A stretch of 45,088 nt of DNA from Paramarasmius palmivorus (Eukaryota; Basidiomycota; Agaricomycetes; Agaricales; Marasmiaceae), in NCBI GenBank assembly GCA_037176845.1, contig JAYKXP010000255.1:1-45088 (forward strand). The letters run 5' to 3'. Each line of letters starts with the position of its first letter. Within the stretch, counting starts at the first letter, position 1. The notes under the pieces are model-generated. The model worked only from the letters and a program-made list of their open reading frames with translations, was not told where the DNA came from and ran no database searches. Both the position numbers and the translations under genes were made by a program. Shown piece by piece: positions 381 to 22,830 of this stretch.

Positions 381-2000
381 CACTCGGCGGAGGCAACACA
401 GCAGGCAGAGGAAAGTTTGAACGCGTTGAGTGAACATCCCGGCTTTCTTTCTCACCTCTTGACTCTCGTGCTCAATCAGACTCAAGATTGTGCTGTCCGG
501 CTTTCGGCCAGTGTATATCTCAAGAACCTAGTAAAGCTAAGATGGGAAGAGGTATGTTGCAGATGTTTTTCCATATCGTGTCACTCAGCCGTGCTATAGG
601 ACGTACAGCCACTTGCAGAACAGGACAAGGCAACCCTACGATTGCGGCTTGTACCAACGCCTTCATTGCCTTCTCAATTGAAGAGAGTCAACCTAGGCCG
701 TTGAGGCAAGTGCAATGCTATCTCCTCAAAGAGTGATATTCACCATTCCTTCCAGTTGTTTGTGAAACTATACACTGAACAACTACTTGAATCCAATGCT
801 GTTCCAGCATTTTTCCAAGGCGTCTGGTCCCTGGTATGTTCCAACAGACTCACCAGGTCTCGGACGATCCTCTGGTTTCGCAGTGTCTCCGATTCCTTTC
901 CACCGCAATCCGCCCCGGTCACTACACCCAACTTTTCATCACGACTAGTGCTGAGACTATATCTACCCTGGTTGAGGGCGTCGTCGTTCCCAATGTATGT
1001 ATCTCCTTTTATGCTGTGCCTTGACCTACCTCTAATCCTTTGTTCAGGTTTCTCTCCAGAAACATGAGCTAGAGCAATTCGGAGACGACCCTCTCGAATT
1101 CATCCATCTTGACCTCTCCATCAGTGGTGCAGGAGCAGGAGGAGCAGGAGTATCTAATGAGGGCGTTACCCATCTTCAGGCAGCTGCAGATGTTGTCAAG
1201 GCTCTCGTTGGTACCGGAGGCGGTGAGGGCGAGAAGATCACGACCAGCATCGTCGGCAACTGGATCGAGCGAGGCCTTGCTCAGTATGTTCAATTTGGCA
1301 AGAGCGCGGACGGCGAAGGGTGGAAGGTCAAAGCAGTGCAATCTACTTCCAGGTACTGCACTTGCTTCAGGTGGAACGACTCAACATGATGTTTACGTCG
1401 ACGAATGCACTCGTTGATGTTGTCAAGTTCTTCTCGGACCATGTGTATGAAGATTTGCAAGCTCAGGCCAATGCACATCCCATATTGCAGGGGGATGCTA
1501 TCCGGTTCTTGTACACATTCCGAAACCAAGTATGTAAGAGGCCACCTACATTAGGCTGTTAGTCATTACTGATTCCTCAAATAGCTCACTAAACAACAAC
1601 TGCCGCTTTCTGTTCTTCCACTGCGAGCGAGGCACCTGGTCAAAGTCAGAGGCTGTATGTCCCATGCTCCCGTCCATTGACTAGCCCTCACAATATATGT
1701 GCTCGAGTCGAAGAAACAGTTGCTCTGATTGCGGAGCTCGACCTTCCTTCAAGGTGGCCTGATCTCATCGATGTACGTCAGTCAGAACTTGTGAATTAAA
1801 TGTCTCGTTGATTTTTTATCGTTACAGCAACTCGTCGGCTCCTTACAGACATCAGACTCTAATACCATCCTCGGCGTCCTTCATCGTACCCATTCCTCGA
1901 CCTCTTCCAAAGAACCGCGACAAGTCTACTCAAAAACGCACCCCCTACATCCGAGAAATTACTCAAAAGGCAGCTCACCAGGCAAAAGGCAGCTCACCAG
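381..2000 (+). pseudogene. CSE1: Exportin-2 (CSE1) pseudogene, block A, rearranged
   Basis: CSE1/exportin-2 returns importin-alpha from nucleus to cytoplasm with Ran-GTP. Here only broken pieces remain. An importin-N-like exon (about 381-550, containing LSEHPGFLSHLLTLVL and RLSASVYLKNLVKLRW) splices to DVQPLAEQDKATLR, which is fused by an internal deletion to a later piece (TPSLPSQLKR). After an intron come LFVKLYTEQLLESNAVPAFF and, in other frames, SDDPLVSQCLRFLSTAIR, then at 1048-1530 ELEQFGDDPLEFIHLDLS, TTSIVGNWIERGLAQYV and NALVDVVKFFSDHVYEDLQA. At 1710-1775 an earlier part of the protein (VALIAELDFPSRWPDLID) reappears out of order, followed by QLVGSLQTSDSN. Frame changes and stops rule out a functional product. 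A 19-bp unit is tandemly duplicated at about 1965-2002. The family call is strong; fragment edges are approximate. Confidence 0.75.
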
Positions 2001-5740: not shown

Positions 5741-8145
5741 GCATTGTCTCGTTCTGACCAACTATTCACAGAGATCAACCTCGTGATGTCCAAGTTTACG
5801 GACCCGTTCCTTGACCTCTTCCGAAGAACCGCAACAAGTCTAGATCTACTCAAAAACGCTCTCCCTACACCCGAGAAATTCATTCGAACTCGATGCATGA
5901 TCCTGCTCGCAGAAACCTACCATGACTTCACGTGTCAAGATATCCCACCGACAGTCCCACGAGGATTTTTTCACCAGCGAATCAGGATGGATCCCAATGC
6001 ATGTTCATGGGATCCATGGCACCCGGATGAGCTCAGGAACAGCGATCCCGGTGGACCAACACCTTCTTTGCCGTCTCAGCTCAAGAGAGGTACCCTAGAA
6101 GTCGTCGAGGTAAGTCTAACGATCCCTCCACAAATTTAGAAGTGATATCTCACCATTCTTTCCAGCTGTTTGTGAAACTATACACCGAAAAGCTCCTGGA
6201 ATCCAACGCCGTACCAGCGTTTCTCCAAGGCGTCCGATCACTGGTAGGTTCCAACAGACTCACCAACAAGTGCGTTGCAGATTTTTTCTCCTATATTGTC
6301 GCTCAGCCTTGCTATAGGATGTACAGCCACTTGCAGAACAGGACAAAGCAGCTCTACGATCGCGGCTTGTACCAGTAATGCTCCAACTTTCGGGCCCTCA
6401 GATAAAGGAATACGCGCTCAAGTCGCAGAATCAGTCGCCCTGATTGCGGAGCTCGACTTTCCTTCATCCCTTCCAGCTGTTTGTGAAATTATACACTGAA
6501 CAACTACTTGAATCCAATGCCGTACCCGTGTTTGTCCAAGGCGTCTGGTCGCTGGTAGGTTCCAACAGCCTTACCAGTGTCTCAGATGATCCCTTGGTCT
6601 CCCAATGCCTTCGCTTCCTTTCCACTGTGATCCGCTCAGGTCACTACACTCAGCTATTCACTACGACAGAAACTATCTCTACCTTGGTTGAAGGCGTCGT
6701 CATTCCGGATGTATGTACGTACCTTCTTTCATGCTAAGCCCTGACCACCTCTAATCCGCCTTCTAGGTCTCTCTCCACCAACATGAGCTAGGCAATTTGG
6801 GGATGACCCGCTTGAATTCATCCGTCTGGAACTTTCTATTGGCGGTGCAGGTGCAGAAGGTGTGGGAGTATCTAACGAAGGTGTTACCCGTCGTCAGGCA
6901 GCTGCAGACGTTGTCAAAGCCCTCGTCGGTACTGGAGGCGGTGAGGGCGAAAAGGTCACCACTAGCATCGTCGGCAACTGGATTGAGCGAGGCCTTACCG
7001 AGTACGTTCAAGCTGGGAAGAGCACAGACAGCGAAGGGTGGAAGGCCAAAGATAGCGCAATCTACCTCCCCACTGCCCTTGCTTCTCAAGGCGCAACCGC
7101 TCAACACGGTGTTACGGCAACGAATGCACTCGTTGATGTCGTCAAGTCTTTCTCGGACCACGTTTATGAGGACTTGCAAGCTCAGGGCAACGTACATCCG
7201 ATATTGCAAGTGGATGCTATCCAGTTCTTGTACACATTCCGAAAGCAAGTATGTAAGAGGCCACCTACATTAGGCTGTTAGTCATTACTGATCCCTCAAA
7301 TAGCTCACCAAACAACAACTGCTTTACGTTCTTCCACTGCTAGCAAGACACCTGCAGTCAGATAACTACGTATACACCTATATGGCAATCACCATCGAGA
7401 GAGTGTTAGCGATATTGATATGACAACCTGGTCAAAGTCAGATGCTGTATGTCCCATGCTCCTATTCATTGACTAGCCCTCACAATACCATTTCAGATTC
7501 ATTCAAACTGACATTCACGAAACCGCCAATGACCTCATCAATGCTCTACTTTCCAAAACCGAAGCTGCAGGGACCCCAGAAAAGGTTGCTGAGAACGACC
7601 ATCTGATGAAATGTATGTCCCTAAGACCCAAGTGTTCTCTTTTCTCCTCACTAACAGCTGGTACTCATCAGGTACAATGCGAGTCATTGTCACTGCACGG
7701 CAGTCTCTTTCACCCAACTACCAGGCGCTGCTCAAGCGATTCGTTGATATCCTCGGCGTCATCTCGCGGAACCCTATCATTTAACAGGGCCGCAGCCTTC
7801 GAATCTCTCATGATCATCAAACTTTTCAGTCCGCCAGGAACTACGCTGAAAGAGGCGAAATCTTCATCTGGAACCGACGACGACACATTTGTCACAATGA
7901 CAGCAATAGACGAAGAAGAGAAAAGCACAGGCTACCAAGCAGCATATTCCAGACTTGCGACATCTGAATCTGTCGACATTGACCCAGTTGCATATGTCAG
8001 CGACCCGGAAAAGTACTTGGGCGGGGAGATGGTGAGGTTCTCAAAGCAAGGGGGCGGTCGTCTTCGGGAATTGCTTTCGCAGTGTAATCCACAGGTCGTG
8101 GGTCCAGTAATACAGAGTTTGGCTCAGGCAGGATATGTGATATGA
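5741..8145 (+). pseudogene. CSE1: Exportin-2 (CSE1) pseudogene, block C, with C-terminus
   Basis: This is the longest CSE1-like copy. Pieces in order: LFTEINLVMSKFTDPFLDLF to TYHDFTCQDIPP and TPSLPSQLKRGTLEVVE (5744-6110), a 56-bp intron, then LFVKLYTEKLLESNAVPAFL (6166-6270). An out-of-order insertion of earlier sequence follows (DVQPLAEQDKAALRSR and AESVALIAELDFPS, 6318-6470), then a second copy of LFVKLYTEQLLESNAVPVF and SDDPLVSQCLRFLSTVIRSG (6477-6700). The next exon is at about 6770-7250 (TTSIVGNWIERGLTEYV, NALVDVVKSFSDHVYEDLQA). The last part (about 7680-8145) reads QSLSPNYQALLKRFVDILGV, then jumps over several hundred missing residues to the CSE1 C-terminus (TAIDEEEKSTGYQAAYSRLA to VIQSLAQAGYVI). 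The internal duplication, internal deletion and frame changes make it a pseudogene. Confidence 0.78.
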
Positions 8146-8991: not shown

Positions 8992-9058
8992 CCGTTGCTC
9001 CGGCAACATTAATCGTGCAAGCCATTTGGCTTTGTTTGGCATCACCTTGCTCACGTGA
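8992..9058 (+). repeat. MULE left end: 9-bp target duplication plus terminal inverted repeat
   Basis: CCGTTGCTC at 8992-9000 is repeated exactly at 22822-22830. The inverted repeat follows at 9001-9058, best conserved from 9010 to 9058 (TAATCGTGCAAG at its start, GCTCACGTGA at its end), with three mismatches to the right copy in that core. Confidence 0.85.
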
Positions 9059-10899
9059 CACGTGATTTCCGTGGCCTTTCCGTGGCCCATCTGGTTGTTA
9101 GATTAGATTGTTCCATTGTCCCAAGAAATATACATGTTTTTCCTCTTCTATGACGTCCTAAGAAATGTCCAAACCTACACGGAAGCTTCAGGCAGTTAAC
9201 GAAGCCCAAATTCGCCAGTTTCTCAATGAAATTACTTCTTCAGGCGCGCTATCATCACCATCAACAGATGTTTACGAGACTCCGGTAGCTCAATTCAAAC
9301 TTTCCGAAGCCGAAGCCGAACAGTTTCTTCAAGAACGCCAGATTATCTCGAAATGGATTTGCCAGAAGCCATGGGATCGGGAGGAGCACAAGACGCGTAA
9401 GAAAGGTGCGTGAAAAGTTCATTCCAAACTATTCTTCATCTCAATTGAATACAGCATCACCCTATCCAGATGCTACGGCAACAAAGCGGGGAAGAAAGCG
9501 AGAATTCGAATGGATGGAGCGCTGGGTCTGCGGACATGCCGGAAAATACAAGGACGAGCAAAATCCGGACCTTTCCCCCAGCAAGCGGCGACCAAACCGC
9601 TATCACAGCAGTGTCAAAGTTGAATGCAGGGCACAAATATATTTCCGAAAGCGGCTTGACACAGACGTAGTGGAAATAGAATATCACCATGAGCACCAAA
9701 ATCACGAGGTCTCTGTGTCAAAAGACTCTATGCTCACTCTGCGAGTGAAGCACTGGATTCAGGAGAAGGTTGATGAAGGATTGACCTGGGCTGCAATTAA
9801 GCCGCTTTTAAGCCTTGATGAACAGATTATGCAGCAGGTACGTGCCCTCATTTCCCAGTACTATAAGTGCTAATTTCCATACAGATTGAACGTGGGGATG
9901 CTGATATGATACCTGATGTATTACGCGTAACTTATATGGACGTGTACAATGCATTACGGCGTCGATTGCAAAAGATTGCGCACTTGGATTCAGATGGCCA
10001 CAAGAGCCTCGAAATGTGGAAGGTCAAACTCGAAGAAAAGGGATATCAAGTGCTCTATGAGCAAGTACGAGGCACGCTCCCTACAGATACAACATACCTA
10101 TTTGCTTTAGTCTCTCCATGGCAACAGACAGTACGTCGGAATTGATCAACTGATAGTATATGTGCTTATTGCGTAAATGTAGCTGTTACAGCGATTCGGC
10201 ATGATTGCGTGCCTGGATTCTACACATAATACATGCTTCTCCGCCTCTGGAAAAGAGGAGAAGGCATTCCTGTACACCATTCTACTCAAGAATGTGACTA
10301 CAGGAAAAGGCTCTCCTGGTGCCTTCATGTTTACTCCCAGTGAGGCACAGTATGCAGTCTCTAGATTCATCTCTTGGCTCCGGACATCCCTCTCCTTCCT
10401 GTGTAACACATGGATGATTGACTGTTCAGATGCTGAAGCTGCCGGAATTCGAAGTGCCTGTGGAGAAAATGTCAAAATCTTTCTCTGTTTATGGCACGTC
10501 ATGAAAGCTGTGACAGAACAAGCTAAACGAAAGCTTATTGCACAGACTGACGGTGATCGCAAGTCCAAGATTTCGGAAAATCAGACCCTCCGGTCTGAGG
10601 CTATCAAAGACTTCAAGCGTCTTGTCTATTCAGTGACAGCCGATGACTTTGATAGTGAGTGGGAGGACATTCTGGAGAAGTATACTGAGTTTCCGGAATG
10701 GATTAAATATTTGGAGACTGAGTGGTACGCAAAGCGAGAGGGATGGTGTATGGCATGGAGAAAAGTGAGTTTTCCTCATTGACATCTTTCAATTGACCAA
10801 TCCTGACACCATACATAGGATACACCTCATTATAAGATTGAAACCAACAACTACGTTGAGTCCTGGCATTGTCAGCTCAAAACCCACTATCTAGGACTT

Positions 10900-11460
10900 T
10901 GTTAGGAATCGTACACTCGTACGATCGCTAGGTGATTGTTGGGATAGGGAGCTTGCCAAGCGACGAAGTAGGATGGCGAGATGAGTATTTAGTTAGCAAG
11001 TGGACGGGATGATTCTGATGAGCTGAATAGCAATCGGGCTATCACGCGGAGAAGCTGATAAGCTGAGATAGATAGATTTCGATGTAAAAAGTACACAAAA
11101 CCTGCTATGAGCAGGTGGATACATGTACGAGAGCCTTATATAGGGTTGAGAGAAACATTCGGTAGCGTAGAAGGGCATAGGATAGAATAGGAATGACTAA
11201 CAGTGCGGCAATATGACTGTACATGAGTGAATAATTGTCAAAAGTAATCGGGAGCGAGAAGGCAAACGGTCATGGGATAGCAACGTGTTGAACGCGTGTA
11301 GGTGAGAATGACAGCGGAGAAGAACGAGTTTGATGGACAAGTGCAATGAGGCGCAAAATTCGGAGACTGAGATGTAAGCGATGTGTCGTGAAATGAAAAG
11401 TTCGTATGATGCCCGATGAATACCCTGGCGATGCGAGTCGTGATGGTACGATTCCTAACA
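10900..11460 (-). repeat. RT1 3' LTR (561 bp)
   Basis: It begins TGTTAGGAATCG and ends GATTCCTAACA, giving perfect 11-base inverted ends around TG...CA. It matches 21421-21981 except A instead of G at 11422. It is flanked on the left by GACTT. Confidence 0.95.
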
Positions 11461-11472
11461 GTACCCCCCTTG
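11461..11472 (-). other. RT1 polypurine tract
   Basis: Immediately before the 3' LTR on the minus strand the sequence is AAGGGGGGTAC, a purine run suitable for priming plus-strand DNA synthesis. Its position against the LTR edge supports the LTR boundary. Confidence 0.7.
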
Positions 11473-11732
11473 TTAGACCCGAGTCCGCGAGGGTCAGCAA
11501 ATCAGAACATGGATAAGGGGCACATTGGCTGGGTAGTGGGATTCATCGGTAGGAAGTGGCGTCTTCTAGAAAGAGGGTGTTCGTATGGTGTTGGCGGCGA
11601 AATCAAAACGTGCTGCAGGGTGGTGAAGTTAGTTGTTGAAGGACATCCGTTGTGGGGAGAGTATGATAATTGAGGGAGCAGGAGTTGTTTAAATAGAGCG
11701 TGAACACTGGGTCTTGACATACCAGAACCACC
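11461..11732 (+). promoter_or_regulatory. Promoter region of the antisense RT1 gene
   Basis: This 272-bp stretch between the 3' LTR and the plus-strand ATG has no ORF of note in the sense direction. TTTAAATA at about 11689-11696 lies some 40 bases before the start codon and could act as a TATA element. The start codon context is good (CACCATGGC). Promoter use is inferred from position only. Confidence 0.4.
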
Positions 11733-13033
11733 ATGGCTTCTTTTTCTCTCAACTACTCTCGCGACTCATCCGTCGATTCCAGTTTGTATGAGGCTGCGCC
11801 CAAGAAAGCTCCATCGATCATCGAGCTTTCTGACTCCGAGGATTCCGCGTCTGAGGACAGTGGTGCCGTCGTTGCGATTTCTGTACCGTTAGCCCCTCTG
11901 GTGAGCGTGACTGAAGATGGGTGAGTGGTTGGTTACTGAGGATTGACGGGTACTTGCTGACTTTATTGTAGCTCGTTGTTGCCCGGACCTCTTTTTGCCA
12001 CCGTTTTCCAAGACACTCTTCGAAGGGTTCAAGATCAAGAATTGGCGATCAAGAATAGAGAAAACCAGTTGGAGGAAAAGGACCGGTGAGTGATGATGAT
12101 GGTTGATTTGAAAGTATCTGGGATGACGTAATTCATTCATCGGTCCCTTGTCTCTAGCATCATCGCTCAATTGCGGGCTCAGGTCGCGGCGCTTGAGCAG
12201 GAGAAGGTGCTATCCCAAGAGGAATGGGAGAGGAAATTCGAGTTTCAGAACAGGTGAATGGTTCCGTTATGGGGTTCAATTGTAGTACACTGATCTTGTT
12301 CTCAGAGTGATTACTTCGTTGGACCGCAATATCGAAAAAACTCTCGAAGCCAAGGAAGAGATAGAACAGTCCTTCAGAGAGGCTGAGTATCGCGGGTCCC
12401 TTTTGGAATCCGATATTGCCGTCCTACGTGGAACGGTCAAGGATCTTGAAGACCGTTATCAACGCGCCGACCTGCACATTTATCATCTCGAATCTGAAGT
12501 CGTCACCCTTTACAACAGCAAGAAAGATCTTTCGGAGAATTTGTTAATGGCTCGTCGAGGAAACATGGCCCGGGTTTCACCTGCACTTTTCAAAGCCTTT
12601 TCGTTGTTGATGAAGACTCTGTGGAAACCGACAGCGTCTCCGGTCGAACCTCTTCAAGACACCCTTATTCAGGCATTAGGGGAGGGACTTCAGCAGGTGG
12701 AGCAGCTGTTTTTCTTCGTCATTCGTGCAAACATGATAAGCCAGATGATAACTGGGGATTTCGATGAGAGTGGTCTAGTAGCCACTCTAGGCTCGGCTCG
12801 ATTGGACATTCCTAGAGTAGAGACGCATCTTGGGCCTACGGGGTGAGTTATACATCATGGTTCTCTTCTCTTTTATTTACTGATCACCCTGTTTGTGGTA
12901 AATCAGACAGTTCACATACTTTCCTGGAATGGCATCTCCTCCTTCAGCCCCTCGTTCAAACCCTGATGCCCCTCGTGGATGCAAACGTCCCCGAATTGAA
13001 GTGGAGGAAGGGGCGGTAGTAGAGACAAATTGA
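11733..13033 (+). CDS. Antisense coiled-coil accessory gene within RT1 (353 aa, five exons)
   Basis: This gene is not recognised. Exons 11733-11920, 11972-12085, 12158-12253, 12306-12842 and 12907-13033 join into one 353-codon frame ending in TGA. The introns (51, 72, 52 and 64 bp) are GTGAGT- or GTGAAT-type with AG ends, and all four are phase 2. Residues 27-43 (PSIIELSDSEDSASEDS) look like a SUMO-interaction motif: a hydrophobic core followed by acidic and Ser residues. Residues about 75-190 are a heptad-rich coiled coil (for example RENQLEEKDRIIAQLRAQVA). A helical domain follows, then a Pro-rich tail with CKRPRIEVEE, a likely nuclear signal. The gene is convergent with pol, whose stop is only 118 bp away, and opposite to the genomic RNA. 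A role in silencing, integration or nuclear import is possible but unproven. Confidence 0.8.
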
Positions 13034-13151
13034 ATAGCGGAAAGTGTAGTGAGTGTTTGTTGGATTTTGAAATGAGTAGATGCTAATAAAGAATGAATCG
13101 TTAGGTAAAGATCGTGCTTTATGTTGTATGCCAATTATGAATATATGTCCT

Positions 13152-16100
13152 TTAGGCCTTTTGAAGTCGTTGCGATCTTCGTGCCGGTGGAGGAGGGGTA
13201 GGCTGTACAAGGGTGGGTGCAACCTTCTTTCTAGGTGTCTTCGGACGTTCCAGTGCCCCAAGTTCCTCTTCGGTTGCCCCAGGCTTGTCAGGATGCGTCT
13301 CCTGATACTCTCTGACCGCCTCCAATGCCCCTGCGACGTTTCGTAGGGGAACCCAGGTATCTTCGTGAGGTTCGTACCCTTCCCATCGTACTAGATACTT
13401 GAGCTGACCCCTGACTTTCTTGGAATCTAAGATTCTTTCTACCACATACTCATCCGCTCCTTCGATTTCGATAGGTGGCGGAGGGGCTTGTTGATGATCC
13501 GGTGGATAATATTTTGACAACAAATTGACGTGGAATACGTTATGGAGGGATTTCATGGATGCCGGGAGCTTAAGGCGAAAGGCATGGGTGGAGACTCGTG
13601 AGTTGATTTCAAATGGTCCGATTCGTTTGTAGTCCAATTTCTTACTAGGACGGCGGGTCTTGATATTTTTTGTGTTCAACCACACCTTAGTTCCTTTCAA
13701 CCAGGTATCCGGTGAGTCTCGTCTTTCTTGATTCGCGTAGACCTCGGATGTTCGATTGGCTAAATCAATTTGCTCCTTCAGGTGTTCGTGTAGGGCTTGC
13801 AAGTCCGAGGCGACCATCTGAGCTGCATGATTGGTGATTCCTTTGAGAGAGATAGTCAAACGTGGATGGTAGCCTTTATTGGCGAAGAAGGGGGATATGC
13901 GAGTGGTGTTGTGGGTGGTGTTGTTGTACGTGAATTCGGCCAGAGGCAGTAGATGGTACCAGTCGTTCTGATCATAGCTGATAAACATTCGCAGGTATTG
14001 TTCCAGTGTTTGGTTGGTTCTTTCAGTCTGACCATCTGACTCTGGATGATAGGCGGTGGAAAAATTCGTTTTGATATCCAGCGCTTGGCACAGGCTCCGC
14101 CAGAAAATAGAGACAAAGGTAGTTCCTCTATCGGAAACCATGTTGATGGGTAGGCCGTGCTTCGCGAAGACATGAGTAATGAAATGGCGCGAAAGTTCCA
14201 CAGCTGAATCTGTCGTTTTGCAGGGAACAAAGATTGCTTGCTTGGTCAATCGACAAACAACGACCATAATAGCATCACAACCATTGGATTCAGGGAGTTC
14301 GATGATGTGATCTACGGATAACGAGCTCCAGGGTCGGTCACTAATGGGTAACGGCTTTAATAACCCGAATTTCTTCTGCCTAGCGGACTTGGCTCTAGCA
14401 CAACCATGACAGGACCGCACATAGTTCGTCACGTCTCGTCGCATTCGGGGCCAGAAATACATCCGATGCAGTAGTTGGGTCGTTTTTCTTATCCCTGGAT
14501 GTCCTCGTAACTTATGGTCATGGTGGCTTCTGATGAGACGTTGTCGGAGGTCCTGGTGATCAGGCACATAGATCAATCCTTCTCGCAAAAGCAGTCCGTT
14601 TTCAATTTGGAATGGACTATCCGGGTTGTTGGTGAGTTCATCTTGCGCTTGTATCCAGTAATCATCTTTGATGGCCTTCTTGACCTGGTTCGCCTCAAGA
14701 TCTTCGTTGAGGATGAGCGCAGCTAAAAGCTGTTCTGGGCAAAGCAAGATCTTTTCGTTATGTTGATTTGCGGAGGCCTGATCAGCTTTCTTTGGATAGA
14801 CATCGGATCGACGAGTAAGTGAGTCCGGTTTTTCTCCTAACCGCCCAGGTCGATAATTGATATTGAAGTCGTAGGAAGAGAGGAGTTCAGACCATCTGGC
14901 TTGGCGACGACTGAGTTTCTTGGTCGTCGTAAAGTATTGTAAGTTGTGATGGTCCGAGAAGACTTGAATTGGGTACTTGGAGCCTTCAAGGTAAGCGCGC
15001 CATTGTTTGAATGATTCTACGATAGCTAATAGTTCCTTGTCGTAGATGTCGTAATTGAGTTCAGCTGGATTCATACTTCGAGCGAAAAACGCGATGGGAT
15101 GAAGAACTCCAGTAGCAGGATCGGGCTGGGAGATGATGGCCGCAATCGCATAGTCCAACGCGTCTGATTCTAGGACGATGGGCTGCTCGGGATTGAAGTG
15201 CTTCAAAATCGGTGCGTTCGTGAATGCTTTTTTGAGTAGCTCAAAGACTGATTGGCAGCCAGAGTCCCAATGCCACGCTCGTTTCTTGGAGGTTAATGCT
15301 GTGAGAGGTTTGACAATTCCCGAGTAGTTATCTATAAAGCGTCGATAGAAGTTGGCGAATCCGAGAAAACCTTGCAATTCCTTGACGTTCGTGGGCGTCG
15401 GCCATTGTTGAATGACGTTTACCTTGCGAGGGTCCATCTTCACACCTTCAGAAGATACGATCACTCCTAGATATTCGACTGAAGTGGTGCAAAATTCGCA
15501 CTTTTCGGGCTTCAGACGCAAGTTGTTTTGCTCGAGTCTTCGTAATACCTCGGATACATTCTTGACGTGTTCTTCTTTGTTGGCAGAAAAGATTAAAATA
15601 TCATCAAGATAAACGACCACGCAGACGTCAACCATATCATGGAAGATGTCATTCATGAATCGCTGAAAAACTGACGGTGCGTTTGTCAACCCCATGGGCA
15701 TAACTAGGAACTCATAGGCGCCATAGCGCGTTCGAAATGCTGTCTTCCATTCCTCACCAGGGGCAATTCGAACATTGTAATACCCTGATCGCAAATCGAG
15801 TTTTGTGAAGATGGAGGATCGTCCAAGTTGATCAATGAGATTCCCGATGAGAGGGATAGGGTAGTTGTTCCTCTTTGTTAGCTTGTTGAGCACGCGGAAA
15901 TCTACACAGAGCCGTAAACTTCCATCTTTCTTCTTTGCAAACAGCACTGGAGCACCTATAGGCGAATTAGAGGCTCGAATGAAGCCTTTTCCGAGCATGT
16001 CATCGATAAACTCCTTTAATGCTTTAAGTTCCACGCCAGACATGTTGTAGACCTTTCCAGCAGGCGGATATTCACCATTTTGGGTTTCAATCTTCATGTC

Positions 16101-17384
16101 GTACGGACGATGGGGCGGCATTTTACTGGCCTCTTTGGCTGAGAAGACTTTGATGAAACGGTGATACTCCTCGGGAACTATGCGCTCGAATTTGGCGCGT
16201 TCTTCAGGAGTCATTTCATCATCGATATTTCCCTCCGTGATATCAGCTGTTGCTCGAATCGATTCCTGATTCGTTGTACCTGATTTTGGGTCATCAATGA
16301 GATCTTCTGAGGGTTGCATTCGTAAGGAGTAGATTTCACAGCCTTGTTTGATGAGGGACATGAATGGTGCGGCTCCCACAAGACTAATAGGTGGCCCCTG
16401 GGTCTTGGGATTAAATTCCGCAAGTTTTTCCTGTTCTTTCAGTGGCATGGGTATCGGTGGAACAGGGGACAAGTTCTTCGATGGGATTGGGGAACACGGA
16501 GACTTGATTGGTAGAGTTGGACTGATCAGTGTGTTGTCAGGTAATGCATCACTTAGGGAATTGAAGTAGTCATCGAGTTCATCTTGATGCAAGAGTAAGG
16601 GATCAGTTTCGTTGAGCGTGTAAGGGATGTTGGAATATTGAGACTGAGGTTCTTCCTGATCCTCGATGGTGACTCGAAGGTGAGGACCATCTTTCCCTTG
16701 AAGTATAGCTTGTTCTTGTAGATAGATAGCCACTTCATCAACATGTAATAGTACCGGTTCGTTCAGTCTTAAAGGCTGATTTGGGCGTTCCTCTAGCTCT
16801 GGTTCTTCTTCTATTGTCGGTGTTCTTGACTTGAGATTGAGATTGCGAATGATGGTTCCGGCGAGGTGTTCATGATGATCTAAGGAAAGACGAAGGCGAG
16901 ACCAGTCAATGGCCGGATTGTATTTACAAAGCCATGGTAAACCTAAAACGATGTTGACCGAGGGGTGTAGCTTCGTGATGAGCATCAGTTCTGGATCCAA
17001 AGTACGATTTCCAAATCGAAGGGTTCCCTGGTATCCTTGGGTAATGAGTCCCGAAGATGTTTCTTTGCCGTCGAATAGAGTAAGCCGGATAGGGTTGTTG
17101 AGATTGACAATGTTTTGAGGATCCTGATTGGCGGTATAGTCGTTGATGAATATTCTCGATGCTCCTGAATCGAGCAGGGCGTTTTCGGTAGTGTTGGTTT
17201 CAGATAGCGTAGTAGAAATAATAAATGCGTCTTCTGTTCGCGAGGTTAAATAGGCAGTGTCGTATGTGGTTTTATTGAGGTCTTGAGAAGAAAAATTAGC
17301 GCATAGGTGAGCTGAGGGTGGTGATGATTGTGTAGGGCTCAGATTTCCCCCTCCTCTAGGGTCGGAGCCCCCAAGTCGTTTCCC
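13152..17384 (-). CDS. pol: RT1 Pol polyprotein: protease, RT, RNase H, integrase, chromodomain
   Basis: The frame is open from just before the slippery site to 13152 and reads without stops. In order: aspartic protease with ALLDSGASRIF (DSGA at 17171-17160); reverse transcriptase (about 16058-15531) with the YLDD active site at 15611-15600; RNase H (about 15190-14840) with ESDALDYA; integrase with an HHCC finger (14525-14400) and catalytic Asp, Asp, Glu near 14312, 14132 and 14024 (VDHII, SDRGT, SDGQTERTN); and a chromodomain (13451-13305) with EYVVERILDSKK and YLVRWEGYEPHEDTWVP. The chromodomain probably guides integration to marked chromatin. No ATG precedes the protease, so expression needs the -1 shift from gag. 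Every catalytic motif is present, so this pol looks functional. Confidence 0.95.
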   Translation of the reverse strand, partial: GKRLGGSDPRGGGNLSPTQSSPPSAHLCANFSSQDLNKTTYDTAYLTSRTEDAFIISTTLSETNTTENALLDSGASRIFINDYTANQDPQNIVNLNNPIRLTLFDGKETSSGLITQGYQGTLRFGNRTLDPELMLITKLHPSVNIVLGLPWLCKYNPAIDWSRLRLSLDHHEHLAGTIIRNLNLKSRTPTIEEEPELEERPNQPLRLNEPVLLHVDEVAIYLQEQAILQGKDGPHLRVTIEDQEEPQSQYSNIPYTLNETDPLLLHQDELDDYFNSLSDALPDNTLISPTLPIKSPCSPIPSKNLSPVPPIPMPLKEQEKLAEFNPKTQGPPISLVGAAPFMSLIKQGCEIYSLRMQPSEDLIDDPKSGTTNQESIRATADITEGNIDDEMTPEERAKFERIVPEEYHRFIKVFSAKEASKMPPHRPYDMKIETQNGEYPPAGKVYNMSGVELKALKEFIDDMLGKGFIRASNSPIGAPVLFAKKKDGSLRLCVDFRVLNKLTKRNNYPIPLIGNLIDQLGRSSIFTKLDLRSGYYNVRIAPGEEWKTAFRTRYGAYEFLVMPMGLTNAPSVFQRFMNDIFHDMVDVCVVVYLDDILIFSANKEEHVKNVSEVLRRLEQNNLRLKPEKCEFCTTSVEYLGVIVSSEGVKMDPRKVNVIQQWPTPTNVKELQGFLGFANFYRRFIDNYSGIVKPLTALTSKKRAWHWDSGCQSVFELLKKAFTNAPILKHFNPEQPIVLESDALDYAIAAIISQPDPATGVLHPIAFFARSMNPAELNYDIYDKELLAIVESFKQWRAYLEGSKYPIQVFSDHHNLQYFTTTKKLSRRQARWSELLSSYDFNINYRPGRLGEKPDSLTRRSDVYPKKADQASANQHNEKILLCPEQLLAALILNEDLEANQVKKAIKDDYWIQAQDELTNNPDSPFQIENGLLLREGLIYVPDHQDLRQRLIRSHHDHKLRGHPGIRKTTQLLHRMYFWPRMRRDVTNYVRSCHGCARAKSARQKKFGLLKPLPISDRPWSSLSVDHIIELPESNGCDAIMVVVCRLTKQAIFVPCKTTDSAVELSRHFITHVFAKHGLPINMVSDRGTTFVSIFWRSLCQALDIKTNFSTAYHPESDGQTERTNQTLEQYLRMFISYDQNDWYHLLPLAEFTYNNTTHNTTRISPFFANKGYHPRLTISLKGITNHAAQMVASDLQALHEHLKEQIDLANRTSEVYANQERRDSPDTWLKGTKVWLNTKNIKTRRPSKKLDYKRIGPFEINSRVSTHAFRLKLPASMKSLHNVFHVNLLSKYYPPDHQQAPPPPIEIEGADEYVVERILDSKKVRGQLKYLVRWEGYEPHEDTWVPLRNVAGALEAVREYQETHPDKPGATEEELGALERPKTPRKKVAPTLVQPTPPPPARRSQRLQKA
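17378..17384 (-). promoter_or_regulatory. Gag-Pol -1 frameshift site GGGAAAC (RT1)
   Basis: In the gag frame the bases read G GGA AAC, the X XXY YYZ form needed for -1 slippage. The pol frame opens only after a TGA about 27 bases upstream, and gag stops at 17341-17339, so the shift must occur in this short overlap, and this is the only canonical heptamer there. Seven bases after it, GGGCTC can pair with GAGCCC, which surrounds the gag stop codon, giving a stem at the usual spacing. Confidence 0.75.
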
Positions 17385-18435
17385 GAATCGTCGTTTTCTT
17401 CAATTTCCTCAAGCCCAAAGAGATCTCCGTTCCCGTCCATAGCGAGAAAATGTTCGTCCTCCTCGACATCCTCTTCGATTGCTAACGCCGCTCGAAGAGT
17501 TGTTGTTCCTTGAGGGCTGGATTGAGTATTGGGGGCGTTCGTGCATTCTCTTGCAAAGTGATTACTACCTCCACAACGTAAGCAAAGGTTGTTGCTCAAG
17601 CGGTGCTCTCGTTCTTGTCTTGTTAAACGAATGATCTCGGGTTGTCGTTGGTTAGCCATTGCAGCCTGTCCCCTGGCGTCCTGAGTCACTGTACCGAGCC
17701 TGTTATTTGAAGTACTGGGATTAGGCGTATTTGATGATCGATTCCTAGAGCCTTCTTGAATCCTTGCTGTTGGCAATCGTCGTTCATTGGCTGCTGATGA
17801 GTTTCCTCGGTAATTGGATGAAGTTACGCTGAGTCCCGCTAGTTGAAACGATTGCCGAGCACCATCAATGCTGATAAGGCGATCCACCAGTTCTTGATAT
17901 GTCCGAGGAATGCTGCCGGCGTAGGTGATCCGATTACGAAGGTCAGCACGAATCTGGTTGAGCATTTTCCAGCGTAGTGTTGCTAAATTGTGCTGGGTTC
18001 GAAGGGCCGCATCTTCAAATCATACCAAATAGCTTGCAAAGGATTCGTTATATTGTTGAACCACTTGATCGAGTTGAGCTTGGGCGTGTAGGAGTTCGTC
18101 GTGAATACCATATAATCGTGCTAATTCGCGAGTAAACGTAGCCCACTCGTGAATTGCCGGAGTGTATATTCCTGTTTCAAATTCTTGTTCGGTCCAGTTC
18201 TGGAAAGTTCTTGCGGCTGCACCTGTTAGCCAAGACGACGCATAGGTAACTCGGCGTTGTTCAGTACTGTAAATCGTCGGTTTCGCCATGAATACGCGGT
18301 AGCAGTCGCTAAGAAAAGGACGCCATTGGGTGGGGTCCGTACCGTCGAATTCTTTTGGTTTGCACACATCGATTTTTGATTCGATGTTGATTGCTTCGCG
18401 AGTAGCGCGGTCTTCATGATTCTGCGGAGATTGAG

Positions 18436-18600
18436 ATCCAGAGGATCCAGGGGGTCCAGTAGGTCCTGGAGGTCCCATTGGTCCTGGAGGTCCAGTCGGT
18501 CCAGGTGGGCCTGGCGGTCCTTGATTTCCAGGAGGACCAGGTGGACCAGATGATCCTGGTGTACCGGAGGGTCCTGGTGGTCCAGGCGGTCCTGGTGGAC
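18436..18600 (-). repeat. Collagen-like Gly-X-Y repeat coding segment
   Basis: The minus strand encodes about 17 consecutive Gly-X-Y triplets (such as [18 protein letters not shown]) inside RT1 Gag, before the capsid domain. The DNA is a near-repeat of GGTCCTGGT-like 9-mers. Confidence 0.85.
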
Positions 18601-19545
18601 TTTCTCGAGTGGTATGATACGATCTTGAAGAAGATTGGGAGTTGTTGGAATGTTGAGAGCCCGAGTGTGATCGCGAAGTCTGCTGGGAATTGTCATGATA
18701 CTGTCGTGAGTACTGTGCAAGTTCTTGATGTTCATTTCGTTCCGAAAACCACGAAGATTGATCTTGAGGTTCGAAAGGTGAGATTTGCGATGAGTTTTCG
18801 GAAGAGGAAGGTCGGAGTTGTCGAGAAGAGGTAGGTGGCGAAGATGGAGGTGAAGGGGGTCCCCCTGTTGTAAATGTAACTTGAGCTGTTGTTCTCGAGC
18901 GTTCCTCGTCTTGAACAGGGGCTGCCGGTAGTTCTTGGGATTGAGCCTGACGTTTTCCTAAGCTTTCTGAGTCTGTATCGAGATCGGAAATGTCATAGAC
19001 TGGCAACCTATCAGAAACATTAGTTGTATGGCTGGATGGATTAGTATCGACCCGGGAATTTCTCAGAGATGCAAAGGCCGACGGTGGAGTATGCCTGAAC
19101 GGTTGACTAGCTTCTGCCCTTCGCCATGAGTCCTCATCGGATGGTGCTCTGTGTGCCGCCCACTTTCCTTTTTCCTTCTTCGTTGGTCCATGCGAAGATT
19201 GATCTTCATTATTGGTGGTTGGGGCTGCTGGGGATGACATGTCGTTTTCATTGATTGAAGGAGCTGGTTGGGACGATGAGGATAATGAAATCGGTATATT
19301 CGTAGATGGTGGTATAGGATCAGGAAGTGGTTGTGATTGAGCCGAGGAGCTTTGGTTAACAGGTACGTTATTTGTTTGGTCTCGGTCCGAAATTGACCGA
19401 CTTGGTTCCTGACGCGTGTTCTCCCTTGCACTCGTCCTTCCACGTCCTGGATAGGGTGTATACGCATATCCTTGTCTTCTAGGCTGTCCCGGTTGGATTT
19501 TTGGTTCCTCGGATGAAGCTTGGGTTGAAGCTGGGCCCCTAGGTA

Positions 19546-21384
19546 TTATCTCCCGAATTGTTCTATCTGCTTGTTGTCGTACTGATCCTTGCTCCCATGA
19601 ACTAGGTTCTTGACTGTATTCGAAGCTCGGTGCTGGTGAATTCGGAGTCTTCGAGACGCAGGGCTAGGTGGAGGCGGCTCATTAGTATTTCTGGTAGGTT
19701 CCCGAACATCTTCCCAAGAACTGGGTTGCTGACTATATACAAAGCTAGGTTCTGGACGTAATCTTGGTTTTCGAGAGTTTGGGCTCGGGGGAGGTGGACT
19801 AGAAGATCGTTCTGGTCGCGGAAAGGATCCCCAAGAACTCGGCTCCTGGCTGTAGACGAAACTTGGTGAAGGGATGACATCTGGAGGTTGGAAGAAACGT
19901 CGAGTAGGAGAGGTGGATACAAAAGGTATGTCTTCTTCTATGTCCCTGCTTTGCGTTGTAGTTGACCTCATATGGGGGTTGCTAGGTCGCTCTACCATTC
20001 TTCGTTGTGGGACCGTCACGTATACCAACTCGCCGTCCGAATTGTACCCTACAAAGCTGGACCTATACCCCGCTGAATCTGCCGTGAATGAACGATGCGA
20101 GGTCGGGAGATTGACTCTTGTACTGGGCCTTTCCATGATGATCACGTCGTCTTCGGATTCTTCGCGTCTGACTGAATCATTAACAGGAGGATTCCAGACG
20201 ACCTGTGTTTCCCCAGTGCGCGGTTCCAACAGCGAAGAAGACTCGGAGTGTCTTTGAGGATTGTGAGAGGGCGGTAAAGGTACGTTTTCAGGTGGTATTG
20301 TATCTACTCGAGTTGTTGACGATGCCTCTTGCCCATAGCTTGTCGTTTTACTGGATTCAGAAGGTAGTCGATTCAAGGCCCTTCGACTAGGCTCCCCAAT
20401 CCGAGAACGCTCAAAAGGGTTGAACGATTCGTATCCCGGTAAGGTAGTCGAACCTTGGGTGTAATCATATCGACTGACATGATACGAAGGAGCTGGACTA
20501 TCTGGAGTACGAGGAAGGCACATGTCGATATGCGGGTTGAAACTCATACGGTAAAGTCGGTCCAGTTCCTGTCGGTTATCCGGATTACTCAGTACTTTGC
20601 GAATTCTAGGTTCCAGATCAAGATCGTGAGTTCGTCGAAGATCGCGGATGGCCATGATGTGTTCCATATTGCTCATTTTATGAATGCCAGGTATACCCAG
20701 ACGTCTTGCAAAGTTATAGCAGTGCATACCTAACTCTTCAATTAGTTCTTGCGCGAAGCGTTGATTTGGAGGGTACCCCTCAGCATAGCTCGGAGTTCCA
20801 GGGTAAGGTTGGCCCATTACTTCCTCATAAGCTTGCTGATATTGAATGTTTCTTTCATTCAGGGACGTTGGGTTACGAAATCTTGACGAACTAGATGATA
20901 GTGCTGGTAGTCCAGGAGGCGTAAGAGGCGAGGATTGTGGCACATTAGTCGGTGGATGCAGATTATGGGGTGCTGGAACGTTCATTACCGAGGCTATATT
21001 TGGGTAAGGTTCTTCATCCCGTCTATAACGTTCGTTGAATAGTTCTGCAGGTCTACCGCCTAGTCCTCGGCTTGGAGAATGTCCTATCGGTTCGAAGATA
21101 TCGTTTGGATGTTCGACCGACGTGTTAGAAGGCGGAAGAGGATAATCATGGGGTTCTACGTCCCTGAAACCCATGTTCTGCATTCGAGCTGCCGAAATAA
21201 CCCGTGAGTCCCAATCATTGTCAGGATTAGCACCCAACTGATTGCCTTCACTATGGAGATGCATAAACGAATCAGACATCAGCTCATGGCGAGAAGACCG
21301 ATCGTAATGGGAAATGGAGTGTCGGCATTCTCGTGAGCGTTCAAGACTAACATGTCTGGTGCACGTAACCGTTGTAGTGGCCAT
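19546..21384 (-). CDS. gag: RT1 Gag, upstream part (612 aa, disordered)
   Basis: It starts at an ATG 24 bases after the primer site. The protein is rich in Ser, Pro and Arg. Around residues 205-290 there is a more ordered region ([40 protein letters not shown]). Near the end are two copies of a SFVYSQxPSSW module, each followed by a Pro/Ser-rich linker; a third copy lies just beyond, in the -1 frame. Comparing the third module with the second shows one base fewer, so a 1-base deletion near 19630-19665 probably separated this ORF from the rest of gag. No slippery heptamer is present in the overlap. An undamaged Gag would then be about 1,350 residues. Alternatively it is a separate ORF. Confidence 0.7.
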
Positions 21385-21407
21385 TTTGTCGTCGGTTTGA
21401 CAAGGGG

Positions 21408-21419
21408 ATAGCAGGTTTT
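21408..21419 (-). other. RT1 primer binding site, self-priming type
   Basis: Read on the minus strand, the bases one position after the 5' LTR are AAAACCTGCTAT. They do not start with TGG as a tRNA-primed site would. They are the exact reverse complement of ATAGCAGGTTTT in the LTR (21629 to 21618), the predicted 5' end of the transcript. In Tf1 and related fungal Ty3-type elements the RNA 5' end folds back onto such a site to prime minus-strand DNA. The gag start codon is 24 bases further on. Confidence 0.65.
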
Positions 21420-21420
21420 A

Positions 21421-21981
21421 TGTTAGGAATCGTACACTCGTACGATCGCTAGGTGATTGTTGGGATAGGGAGCTTGCCAAGCGACGAAGTAGGATGGCGA
21501 GATGAGTATTTAGTTAGCAAGTGGACGGGATGATTCTGATGAGCTGAATAGCAATCGGGCTATCACGCGGAGAAGCTGATAAGCTGAGATAGATAGATTT
21601 CGATGTAAAAAGTACACAAAACCTGCTATGAGCAGGTGGATACATGTACGAGAGCCTTATATAGGGTTGAGAGAAACATTCGGTAGCGTAGAAGGGCATA
21701 GGATAGAATAGGAATGACTAACAGTGCGGCAATATGACTGTACATGAGTGAATAATTGTCAAAAGTAATCGGGAGCGAGAAGGCAAACGGTCATGGGATA
21801 GCAACGTGTTGAACGCGTGTAGGTGAGAATGACAGCGGAGAAGAACGAGTTTGATGGACAAGTGCAATGAGGCGCAAAATTCGGAGACTGAGATGTAAGC
21901 GATGTGTCGTGAAATGAAAAGTTCGTATGATGCCCGATGAATGCCCTGGCGATGCGAGTCGTGATGGTACGATTCCTAACA
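21421..21981 (-). repeat. RT1 5' LTR (561 bp) with promoter
   Basis: This is the upstream LTR with respect to gag-pol on the minus strand and is followed on the right by the target duplication GACTT. It carries the predicted minus-strand TATA box (TATATAA, 21663 to 21657) and a hairpin-forming ACCTGCTCATAGCAGGT at the predicted RNA start. One base differs from the other LTR. Confidence 0.95.
21618..21663 (-). promoter_or_regulatory. Predicted RT1 promoter: TATA box and transcript start
   Basis: On the minus strand TATATAA runs from 21663 to 21657. An RNA start at 21629 lies 34 bases from the first T of this box, a normal spacing. The start is chosen because the RNA would then begin AUAGCAGGUUUU, exactly complementary to the 12 bases next to the LTR at 21408-21419. 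The start itself is inferred, not seen. Confidence 0.55.
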
Positions 21982-22763
21982 GACTTATGCGGAGGCAACG
22001 TGTCGATGTTCTACTTCACATACTGACAGAAAAGGTGGAACCTGACTTTCGACGAGCAGATTTAATGGTCAGGTTGGACTACGAACACCCACGGTTATCC
22101 AAGGAGGAGCGGGAAAGCCAAAGGAAGGCCCAAGCAGTTCCCGCAACTGAGCTCGAGGACAGGATAGATGTACCTATTGAACTTTCTGATAAGGTATGCA
22201 GAGTCATTCACATCAGCTGCATTTCTGATTGCGTTACAGACACCTGATCTCTATGTCCAATCATTTGCCGACCCGGATCTTTGGTACCGTGTTGGTGTAT
22301 CTGACTTCAAGGATCCCTCGGGAGCACGCCGTGCAGCTGTGATTTCATGCGAGTGCCCTGGATTTGAGGGAAATCAGTTGAAGTGCAAGCATATGTTTCT
22401 TGCTTCACGTTTCAATGGGCTTCCAGTCCATCATTTTGGTGGATTGCCTCAAGATTTTCCTTCATCTCATCCTTTGCCACCTACTCAGAATGAAGCTACG
22501 CCAACAGATGTGGATAATCAGAAGATAGCGCAGATAGCTCGCATCAAATCAGCTGTGTCTACACTTCAAAACCTTACTGAGAAGCTTGGAAAGATGGCAC
22601 TGGCTGATGTCTCACGTGTACAGCTCAACAATGTTGAGACTCAGGTAGTATCAGCACGCCGGGGACTCTCTGAAGTAGTTTATTCACGCGAATTGTATGC
22701 TACACAATAATTTAACCACGTATTTCTACGAGATTTGATCCAGACGCGTGTGCCCGTGGCCCA

Positions 22764-22830
22764 TCACGTGACCAAGGTGTTGCCAAACAAAGCCAATTGG
22801 CTTGCACGATTATGGTCGCCCCCGTTGCTC
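22764..22830 (-). repeat. MULE right end: terminal inverted repeat plus 9-bp target duplication
   Basis: Positions 22764-22821 are the reverse complement of the left terminal repeat (CTTGCACGATTA at 22801-22812 mirrors TAATCGTGCAAG). The direct repeat CCGTTGCTC follows at 22822-22830. Confidence 0.85.

What the first reader, a model, noticed from the sequence alone, without database searches (positions are those of the whole stretch)
11733..13033. Intron-containing antisense gene carried inside an LTR retrotransposon
Between pol and the 3' LTR of RT1, the opposite strand encodes a five-exon, 353-residue protein. All five exons join in frame over four GT-AG introns, hard to get by chance. Introns in a sense gene would be spliced from the genomic RNA and lost on reverse transcription; in antisense they are invisible to the spliceosome in that RNA and can be carried along. 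The element could thus move a separately transcribed, spliced accessory gene. Antisense ORFs are known in some plant Ty3 elements, but I know of no described fungal family like this.
Basis: partly seen in the sequence, partly recalled or inferred. Interest (0 to 1): 0.88.

Follow-up and report, generated by a model that had tools for sequence, protein, structure and literature searches.

The report
Spliced antisense gene inside a retrotransposon
A jumping element in the mushroom-forming fungus Paramarasmius palmivorus carries, on its opposite strand, a five-exon gene whose protein sequence and four intron positions are conserved in related elements, and the introns likely survive copying because the element's own RNA would read them backwards.

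Summary
Window 11733-13033 (+) encodes a 353-residue protein in five exons over four GT-AG introns. It equals an NCBI-annotated gene letter for letter, and 0 of 500 dinucleotide shuffles give as long a spliced frame. It lies between pol and the 3' LTR of a minus-strand Ty3 chromodomain element (LTRs 1 mismatch in 561, 5-bp target duplication). Related elements in the same genome carry it at the same place and strand. Three diverged copies keep all four introns at identical positions and phase, dN/dS about 0.1-0.2; two more distant copies carry a six-exon relative. A second element, inserted elsewhere with its own target duplication and identical LTRs, has the introns too, so they very likely passed through the RNA stage. 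Two sister clades carry other antisense proteins in the same slot. Against the C117 copy, gene plus U3 is diverged while flanking pol and R-U5 are nearly identical: a module exchange, likely by strand transfer. Predicted product: a coiled-coil, likely nuclear protein with a SUMO-interacting-like motif. Antisense accessory genes are known in plants and in fungal Boty (brtn), so this is a new, multi-intron variant. Transcription and function were not tested.

The parts
10895..10899 (.). left target-site duplication GACTT
21982..21986 (.). right target-site duplication GACTT
10900..11460 (-). 3' LTR (561 bp), in element orientation
   Evidence: 1 mismatch to the 5' LTR
21421..21981 (-). 5' LTR (561 bp)
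13152..17399 (-). pol frame: protease, RT, RNase H, integrase, Tf2-1-like SH3, chromodomain
17339..21417 (-). gag region in three frames (17339-18019, 18020-19663, 19546-21417); interrupted in this copy
   Evidence: C117 is open where read
11688..11697 (+). TATA-like TTTAAATAGA, 45 nt before the antisense ATG; same motif 46 nt (C117) and 45 nt (C115) before theirs, not in C11; predicted core promoter
   Evidence: sequences printed, compared by eye
11733..11920 (+). antisense gene exon 1
11921..11971 (+). intron 1 (51 nt, GTGAGT...TAG, phase 2)
11817..11843 (+). codes IIELSDSED, SUMO-interacting-like motif (label recalled), kept in 4 of 4 closer copies
11972..12085 (+). exon 2
12086..12157 (+). 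intron 2 (72 nt)
12158..12253 (+). exon 3
12254..12305 (+). intron 3 (52 nt)
12306..12842 (+). exon 4 (537 nt in all four closer copies)
12843..12906 (+). intron 4 (64 nt)
12907..13033 (+). exon 5 with stop
11994..12555 (+). span (with introns 2 and 3) coding residues 71-216, predicted as one long helix, coiled-coil-like
   Evidence: pLDDT mostly above 90 there; generic SMC-type matches
12983..13000 (+). codes KRPRIE, basic patch of nuclear-localisation type (label recalled); KRPRIE/KRPRVE in 4 of 4 closer copies
11117..13150 (.). module of U3 plus antisense gene that is diverged from C117 while both sides are nearly identical (right boundary about 13150-13170)
11097..11108 (-). ATAGCAGGTTTT, predicted 5' end of the RNA (start of R), complementary to the priming site
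21408..21419 (-). AAAACCTGCTAT just inside the 5' LTR, predicted self-priming site

Best explanation
RT1 is a Ty3 chromodomain retrotransposon that carries a conserved five-exon protein-coding gene on its opposite strand between pol and the 3' LTR, likely transcribed from its own promoter and spliced to make a predicted nuclear coiled-coil protein that would regulate the element. Shown from sequence: the exon/intron anatomy, its conservation under purifying selection in related elements, the fixed place and strand, and the presence of the introns in two separate recent insertions. Inferred: in the sense (genomic) RNA the introns read as CT...AC and are not spliced, so reverse transcription copies them, whereas a plus-strand transcript from the conserved TATA-like box is spliced into mRNA. 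Inferred from motifs: the product dimerises through a helix of about 145 residues, enters the nucleus through its KRPR[IV]E patch and contacts SUMO-modified chromatin proteins through its hydrophobic-acidic N-terminal motif. It most likely tunes transcription from its own U3, since in the one pair of elements examined gene and U3 lie on one module exchanged as a unit, likely by template switching at the first strand transfer. My rough odds per step: real gene 0.97; introns pass through RNA 0.9; own promoter 0.75; nuclear 0.6; regulator of its own element 0.4.
For: Exact match to an annotated gene; 0 of 500 shuffles. Antisense in 7 of 7 places found for this gene family, C44 and C115a probably being one insertion. 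In C255, C117, C115 and C11, exons 2-4 are 114/96/537 nt and all four introns sit at the same place and phase with GT-AG ends. dN/dS 0.09-0.17 (NG86, 5 of 6 pairs computable) and 0.07-0.23 (ML, 6 of 6); codon-position differences C255-C117 22/15/51%. C54 and C115b: six exons, exons 2-5 identical in length (159/42/146/367), ML dN 0.25, dS 2.8; my C115b model equals NCBI VNI00_016033. C117: LTRs 552 of 552 identical, duplication GGTGA, all introns present. TATA-like box at near-constant distance in 3 of 4 copies. Motif conservation. Module boundary 8 nt from the predicted RNA 5' end.
Against: No transcript data. dS is near or beyond saturation, so ratios are rough. AATAAA downstream of the gene occurs in C255 only (0 of 3 other copies); C11 lacks the TATA-like box. 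In C54 and C115b the acidic part of the SUMO-type motif and the C-terminal basic patch are absent. No Pfam domain above its cut-off was seen, though the database row of P0005 bears PF24161, which I did not resolve. The co-exchange of U3 and gene was seen in one pair of elements, also follows passively from reverse transcription, and does not show that the protein acts on U3; other parts of the same pair (middle gag, RT) are diverged too. C119, C175 and C190, three of 24 elements with RT at least 57% identical to RT1 (counted by eye), gave no antisense match. The gag frame of this copy is interrupted.
Confidence: 0.62

Rival explanations
1. The antisense gene is real, but its product helps a later step, such as nuclear import of the cDNA or choice of integration site through SUMO-bearing chromatin, rather than regulating transcription.
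For: Coiled coil, KRPR patch and SUMO-interacting-like motif suit an adaptor between cDNA and chromatin; the element has a chromodomain integrase, i.e. likely already targets chromatin.
Against: Gene and U3 form one exchanged module while integrase lies on the other side of the breakpoint and is nearly identical between C255 and C117, which does not suggest co-evolution with integrase. Neither role was tested.
Confidence: 0.25
2. The useful product is the antisense RNA: overlapping convergent transcripts give double-stranded RNA that limits the element, and the protein is incidental.
For: Gene stop (13033) and pol stop (13152) are convergent and about 120 bp apart, so 3' ends may overlap. Such a role is discussed for plant antisense ORFs (PMC7264820, passages read).
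Against: Amino-acid-level constraint, third-position excess and conserved splice sites are not needed for a dsRNA role.
Confidence: 0.08
3. The gene is a recently captured host gene (transduction), carried as a passenger.
For: Introns resemble ordinary short fungal introns; origin of the protein is unknown.
Against: No copy outside elements was found: (best candidates only) all 22 matches fall in six element copies, and adds C115b; the protein searches, of limited sensitivity, return only proteins of this species. It is conserved over RT divergence down to about 80-84% identity, so it is not recent.
Confidence: 0.04
4. Gene-prediction artefact or chance open frames.
For: Annotation pipelines often predict genes in repeats; the stricter spliced-frame search did not single the gene out.
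Confidence: 0.01

Closest known systems
brtn in Boty-like elements of Botrytis cinerea (Zhao et al. 2011, Virology 417:248; not held; known here only from passages of PMC7264820, PMC8365987, PMC4227169 and PMC5987419)
   Same: Fungal LTR element with chromodomain (PMC4227169 passage) and an additional antisense gene, placed between pol and 3' LTR (PMC7264820 passages).
   Different: Ascomycete host (recalled). Sequence homology to brtn not tested; whether brtn has introns not seen.
Antisense aORFs of plant Ty3 elements (Grande gene23, RIRE2, Retand, TRP28 proteins; PMC7264820 and PMC11963269, passages read)
   Same: Antisense, between pol and 3' LTR, conserved across families; own promoter and nuclear product reported for Grande; regulatory role proposed.
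   Different: Retand is a non-chromovirus lineage; TRP28 domain not found here. The word intron does not occur in the two texts; the 2020 review asks that antisense and spliced transcripts be looked for.
HTLV-1 hbz (PMC6731619, passages read)
   Same: Spliced antisense gene of a retroelement, giving a bZIP regulator of the provirus.
   Different: hbz transcripts start in the 3' LTR and the spliced isoforms described there join one exon 1 to one acceptor; here the gene, TATA-like box and all exons lie outside the LTR, there are four introns, and no bZIP domain was found.
Tf1/sushi-type self-primed chromoviruses (recalled)
   Same: Domain order, SH3_Tf2-1 and chromodomain; 12-nt complementarity between the predicted RNA 5' end and the site next to the 5' LTR.
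   Different: Long gag with collagen-like repeat and the antisense gene.

Membership tests
LTR-retrotransposon antisense additional ORF (aORF-3R) | coding region between pol and 3' LTR, antisense to gag-pol | tested here: met
   window anatomy; of 28 gene places of clades A, B and C, 22 have an RT match within 8 kb on the expected side and all 22 are antisense; the other 6 could not be paired
LTR-retrotransposon antisense additional ORF (aORF-3R) | present in most copies of the family and not a one-off transduction | tested here: met
   7 places for this gene (C44/C115a probably one insertion); absent in truncated C119
LTR-retrotransposon antisense additional ORF (aORF-3R) | transcribed antisense | not testable with these tools
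   no RNA data
Ty3 chromovirus | RT, RNase H, integrase order with C-terminal chromodomain | tested here: met
   Pfam RVT_1, RT_RNaseH, Integrase_H2C2, Chromo in that order; rve core itself below its cut-off
Tf1-type self-priming | RNA 5' end complementary to the primer site beside the 5' LTR | tested here: inconclusive
   12-nt complementarity AAAACCTGCTAT/ATAGCAGGTTTT in sequence; RNA 5' end not measured
brtn of Boty | homologous protein | not tested
   paper not held and the BRTN sequence was not obtained
Retand TRP28 proteins | TRP28 domain (PF04195) | tested here: not met
   Pfam scan of the window protein at E 0.01
HBZ-like | bZIP domain | tested here: not met
   Pfam scan at E 0.01; long helix only
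HBZ-like | antisense transcript starting in the 3' LTR | tested here: inconclusive
   TATA-like box and ATG lie outside the LTR, but the start site was not measured

The most novel reading that the evidence does not exclude
In this fungal lineage the antisense slot between pol and the 3' LTR is a standing compartment for intron-bearing regulators: three sister clades fill it with proteins of no detectable kinship, and each regulator travels with its own U3 promoter as one cassette that elements swap by strand transfer, so that elements keep private regulator-promoter pairs.
Probability: 0.3. Interest if true: 0.82.

Novelty: new variant of a known kind. Interest (0 to 1): 0.62.

Why it matters
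It is a retroelement gene that keeps several spliceosomal introns, very likely through repeated rounds of reverse transcription, which a sense gene could hardly do. It shows that antisense orientation would let an element carry an ordinary, intron-bearing gene, and gives a set of copies (six distinct insertions, two gene architectures, two sister clades with other antisense genes) in which function, promoter and exchange can be tested. It also extends antisense accessory genes to a basidiomycete and links the gene to the U3 as an exchangeable module.

Tried and rejected
Chance frames: rejected, after a stricter search had failed to single the gene out. Host-gene capture: no non-element copy found in searches of limited reach. 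Common origin of the antisense proteins: hhalign between A (A2) and B (A3), A and the C380-type of clade C (A4), and B and C gave E 0.14, 0.45 and 0.18, i.e. no detectable homology, but with 2-6 rows per profile this is a weak test; BLASTP of the window protein with the C102-type gave nothing. Within clade C the C380-type and C102-type share a Cys module (35% over 55 residues, E 9e-7 for that single comparison), although neither genome search found the other type. GAL4-type zinc cluster in clade C: spacing C-x2-C-x6-C-x13/14-C-x2-C-x6-C is suggestive (rule recalled), but Pfam Zn_clus is below its cut-off (E 0.031 and 0.12). The structure model is confident only for the long helix (mean pLDDT 66.1, pTM 0.28), so no fold search was made. 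The bacterial promoter scan is not meaningful for a fungus. NCBIfam matches are generic coiled coil. C104, C87, C36 and C12, one stretch each read: no match to A, B or C proteins; C104 has no antisense ORF of 80 codons, C87 up to 107, C12 up to 128, C36 up to 251; their LTR ends were not mapped, so these ORFs are not placed. RNA support, other fungal genomes and the brtn sequence were out of reach; homologues in other fungi may be missed because the protein search needs shared 5-residue words, and searches scored only the best candidates.

Full report
OBSERVATION. Exons 11733-11920, 11972-12085, 12158-12253, 12306-12842 and 12907-13033 join to 353 codons over four introns of 51, 72, 52 and 64 nt. 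The product is letter for letter the NCBI protein VNI00_018643 of Paramarasmius palmivorus, a basidiomycete of the Marasmiaceae. A search for the longest spliced frame between the 3' LTR and the pol stop returns these five exons; the other strand gives 270 nt and 0 of 500 dinucleotide shuffles reach 1062 nt (maximum 807). A first run with a donor rule that excludes intron 3 gave only 423 nt, below the best of 300 shuffles (435).

HOST ELEMENT. RT1 runs on the minus strand. LTRs 10900-11460 and 21421-21981 are 561 bp with one mismatch and are flanked by GACTT on both sides. Pol (13152-17399) holds protease, RT, RNase H, integrase, a Tf2-1-like SH3 and a chromodomain. Just inside the 5' LTR stands AAAACCTGCTAT, complementary to ATAGCAGGTTTT in the LTR 3' of a TATATAA box: the layout of a self-primed, Tf1-like element (label recalled). 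A polypurine tract lies 3 nt from the 3' LTR. In this copy gag is split over three frames; in C117 the gag stretches read are open.

OTHER COPIES. In the 68.3-Mb genome the protein finds 22 matches (best candidates only) in six element copies (C255, C117, C115a, C44, C11, C54), and tblastn on fetched stretches adds C115b. C44 and C115a are identical over the 4.6 kb compared, to about 128 bp beyond the LTR, so I count them as one insertion. In all seven places the gene is antisense, 1.8-2.2 kb downstream of the RT match. One related element, C119 (RT 91%), has no such gene in the stretch read, but its pol match breaks off before the end.

CONSERVATION. C255, C117, C115 and C11 have exons 2-4 of 114, 96 and 537 nt each; all four introns have GT-AG ends, the same position and phase 2, though intron sequence differs. 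Protein identity to C255 is 71, 65 and 52%. C11 is annotated from an internal Met; an open frame extends upstream to MDSFSASRS...VIEISDTES, resembling the N-terminus of the others. dN/dS among C255-C117, C255-C115 and C117-C115 is 0.10, 0.09 and 0.12 (NG86) and 0.16, 0.14 and 0.16 (ML); pairs with C11 give 0.07-0.23 where computable. ML dS is above 1.2 in all six pairs, so the values are rough, but differences by codon position (22/15/51% for C255-C117) show the same. C54 and C115b carry a more distant relative (28 and 27% identity) in six exons; exons 2-5 are 159/42/146/367 nt in both, ML dN 0.25 and dS 2.8, NG86 dS not computable. My C115b model, made before I saw the annotation, equals VNI00_016033.

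INTRONS AND REVERSE TRANSCRIPTION. C117 has LTRs identical at 552 of 552 positions and a different duplication, GGTGA, so C255 and C117 are separate, recent insertions; both hold the four introns. That the introns passed through the RNA stage follows from established LTR-element biology (integration of cDNA); it was not observed. In the sense RNA the introns read CT...AC, which the spliceosome does not use.

PROMOTER. TTTAAATAGA stands 45, 46 and 45 nt before the ATG in C255, C117 and C115, followed by ACATACC nearer the ATG; C11 lacks this exact box (read by eye). The C255 ATG context is ACCACCATGG. AATAAA follows the gene at 13085 in C255 only, 0 of 3 others. Own promoter and polyadenylation are therefore predictions, the second weakly supported.

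PROTEIN. Residues 71-216 are predicted as one helix, with high confidence over most of it; the rest of the model is weak (mean pLDDT 66.1, pTM 0.28). The N-terminus carries IIELSDSED, IIELSDSED, VIEISDSEE or VIEISDTES in 4 of 4 closer copies; shuffling each N-terminus gives such a pattern in 1-3% of cases (the four sequences are related, so not independent, and in C255 and C115 the pattern also matches a second place, LVSV). KRPRIE/KRPRVE stands near the C-terminus in 4 of 4. SUMO-interacting and nuclear-localisation labels are recalled pattern names. C54 and C115b lack the acidic part and the basic patch. No Pfam family shown passes its cut-off; the database row of P0005 bears PF24161, unresolved.

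SISTER CLADES. Elements with RT 64-70% (B) and 52-60% (C) identical to RT1 also carry antisense genes in the slot, with other proteins: B in 5 elements; C in 10, of which 7 have a C380-type and 3 a C102-type protein, the two types sharing only a Cys module. Over A, B and C, 22 of 28 gene places have an RT match within 8 kb on the expected side, all 22 antisense; 5 have no RT match within 8 kb and 1 has only an RT in another arrangement. Looked at from the RT side, I count by eye (98 of 182 candidates scored) 24 elements with RT at least 57% identical; 21 have an antisense match, while C119 (truncated), C175 (RT with five stops) and C190 (RT at a contig end) have none. In an RT tree of 29 rows, A (100/98), B (100/99) and C (100/100) are each one side of a branch, A+B 100/98, A+B+C 82/83; the tool warns that long outgroup branches meet, and the root is a midpoint. 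C150 and C298 are not in the tree. Single stretches of C104, C87, C36 and C12 showed no antisense homologue of A, B or C. Profile comparison finds no kinship between A, B and C proteins, a weak test with few rows.

MODULE EXCHANGE. Identity of C255 to C117 along the element in steps of 150-200 bp: gag N-terminal part 98-100%; middle gag 58-90%; protease region 94-98%; RT 72-84%; integrase and chromodomain 97-100% up to about 14700; antisense gene and U3 60-76% (55-79% in the finer steps); R-U5 100%. Synonymous divergence follows: 0.03-0.14 in pol codons 840-1320, not computable (saturated) in 480-840, 1.25-1.9 in the antisense gene. So the pair is a mosaic with several switches, of which the gene module is one. 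One of its boundaries lies near the pol stop, about 13150-13170. The other lies at LTR sense position 345, 8 nt from the predicted RNA 5' end at 353. That is what a strand-transfer recombinant would look like: minus-strand strong-stop DNA (R-U5) of one RNA jumps to the 3' end of another, copies its U3 and antisense gene, and switches back near the pol stop. U3 and gene thus move together. Whether this pairing is functional or passive is open, and only this pair was examined.

COMPARISON. [quoted passage not shown] passages read) and in the fungal Boty as brtn (Zhao et al. 2011, known only from passages of citing papers). A spliced antisense gene is known in HTLV-1, hbz (PMC6731619; passages read). 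In the listings of the searches made I saw no report of a multi-intron antisense gene conserved in an LTR retrotransposon family; the library lacks most subscription papers, Zhao et al. among them. Hence: new variant of a known kind.

Noticed in passing
window 9002-9058 and 22764-22820: RT1 sits inside another mobile element: 57-bp inverted repeats (89% complementary) flank coding pieces with a FAR1 match below its cut-off (9289-9873) and a SWIM zinc finger (22168-22710), as in MULE/FAR1-type transposases (label recalled).
   Followed up: partly
window 18431-18598: Gag of RT1 carries a collagen-like Gly-Pro-Pro repeat (Pfam Collagen, E 3.8e-9).
   Followed up: no
window 17339-21417: Gag is interrupted in this copy, whereas the corresponding stretches of C117 are open where read.
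   Followed up: partly
window 21408-21419 and 11097-11108: Self-priming layout: 12 nt beside the 5' LTR are complementary to the predicted start of R.
   Followed up: partly
L073, L074, L079: Antisense genes of clade C elements carry two CxxC(x6)C groups like a fungal zinc cluster plus an acidic stretch; Pfam Zn_clus below cut-off.
   Followed up: partly
L075 369-1043: An outgroup Ty3 element (C104) has an extra sense-strand ORF of 225 codons (stop to stop) after its pol C-terminus.
   Followed up: no
L077 591-2247: The stretch after pol of the C36 element holds several antisense ORFs (up to 251 codons) without a match to the A, B or C proteins; not placed inside or outside the element.
   Followed up: no
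window 547-1751 and 6150-7487: Several homologous blocks (83-94%) are repeated, most about 5.7 kb apart.
   Followed up: no
window 38201-43217: A second retroelement-like region: an open frame with an aspartyl protease match (39955-41565).
   Followed up: no
window 13136-13147: TATGAATATATG between gene stop and pol stop is kept in 4 of 4 closer copies though the surroundings differ; possible 3'-end signal.
   Followed up: no
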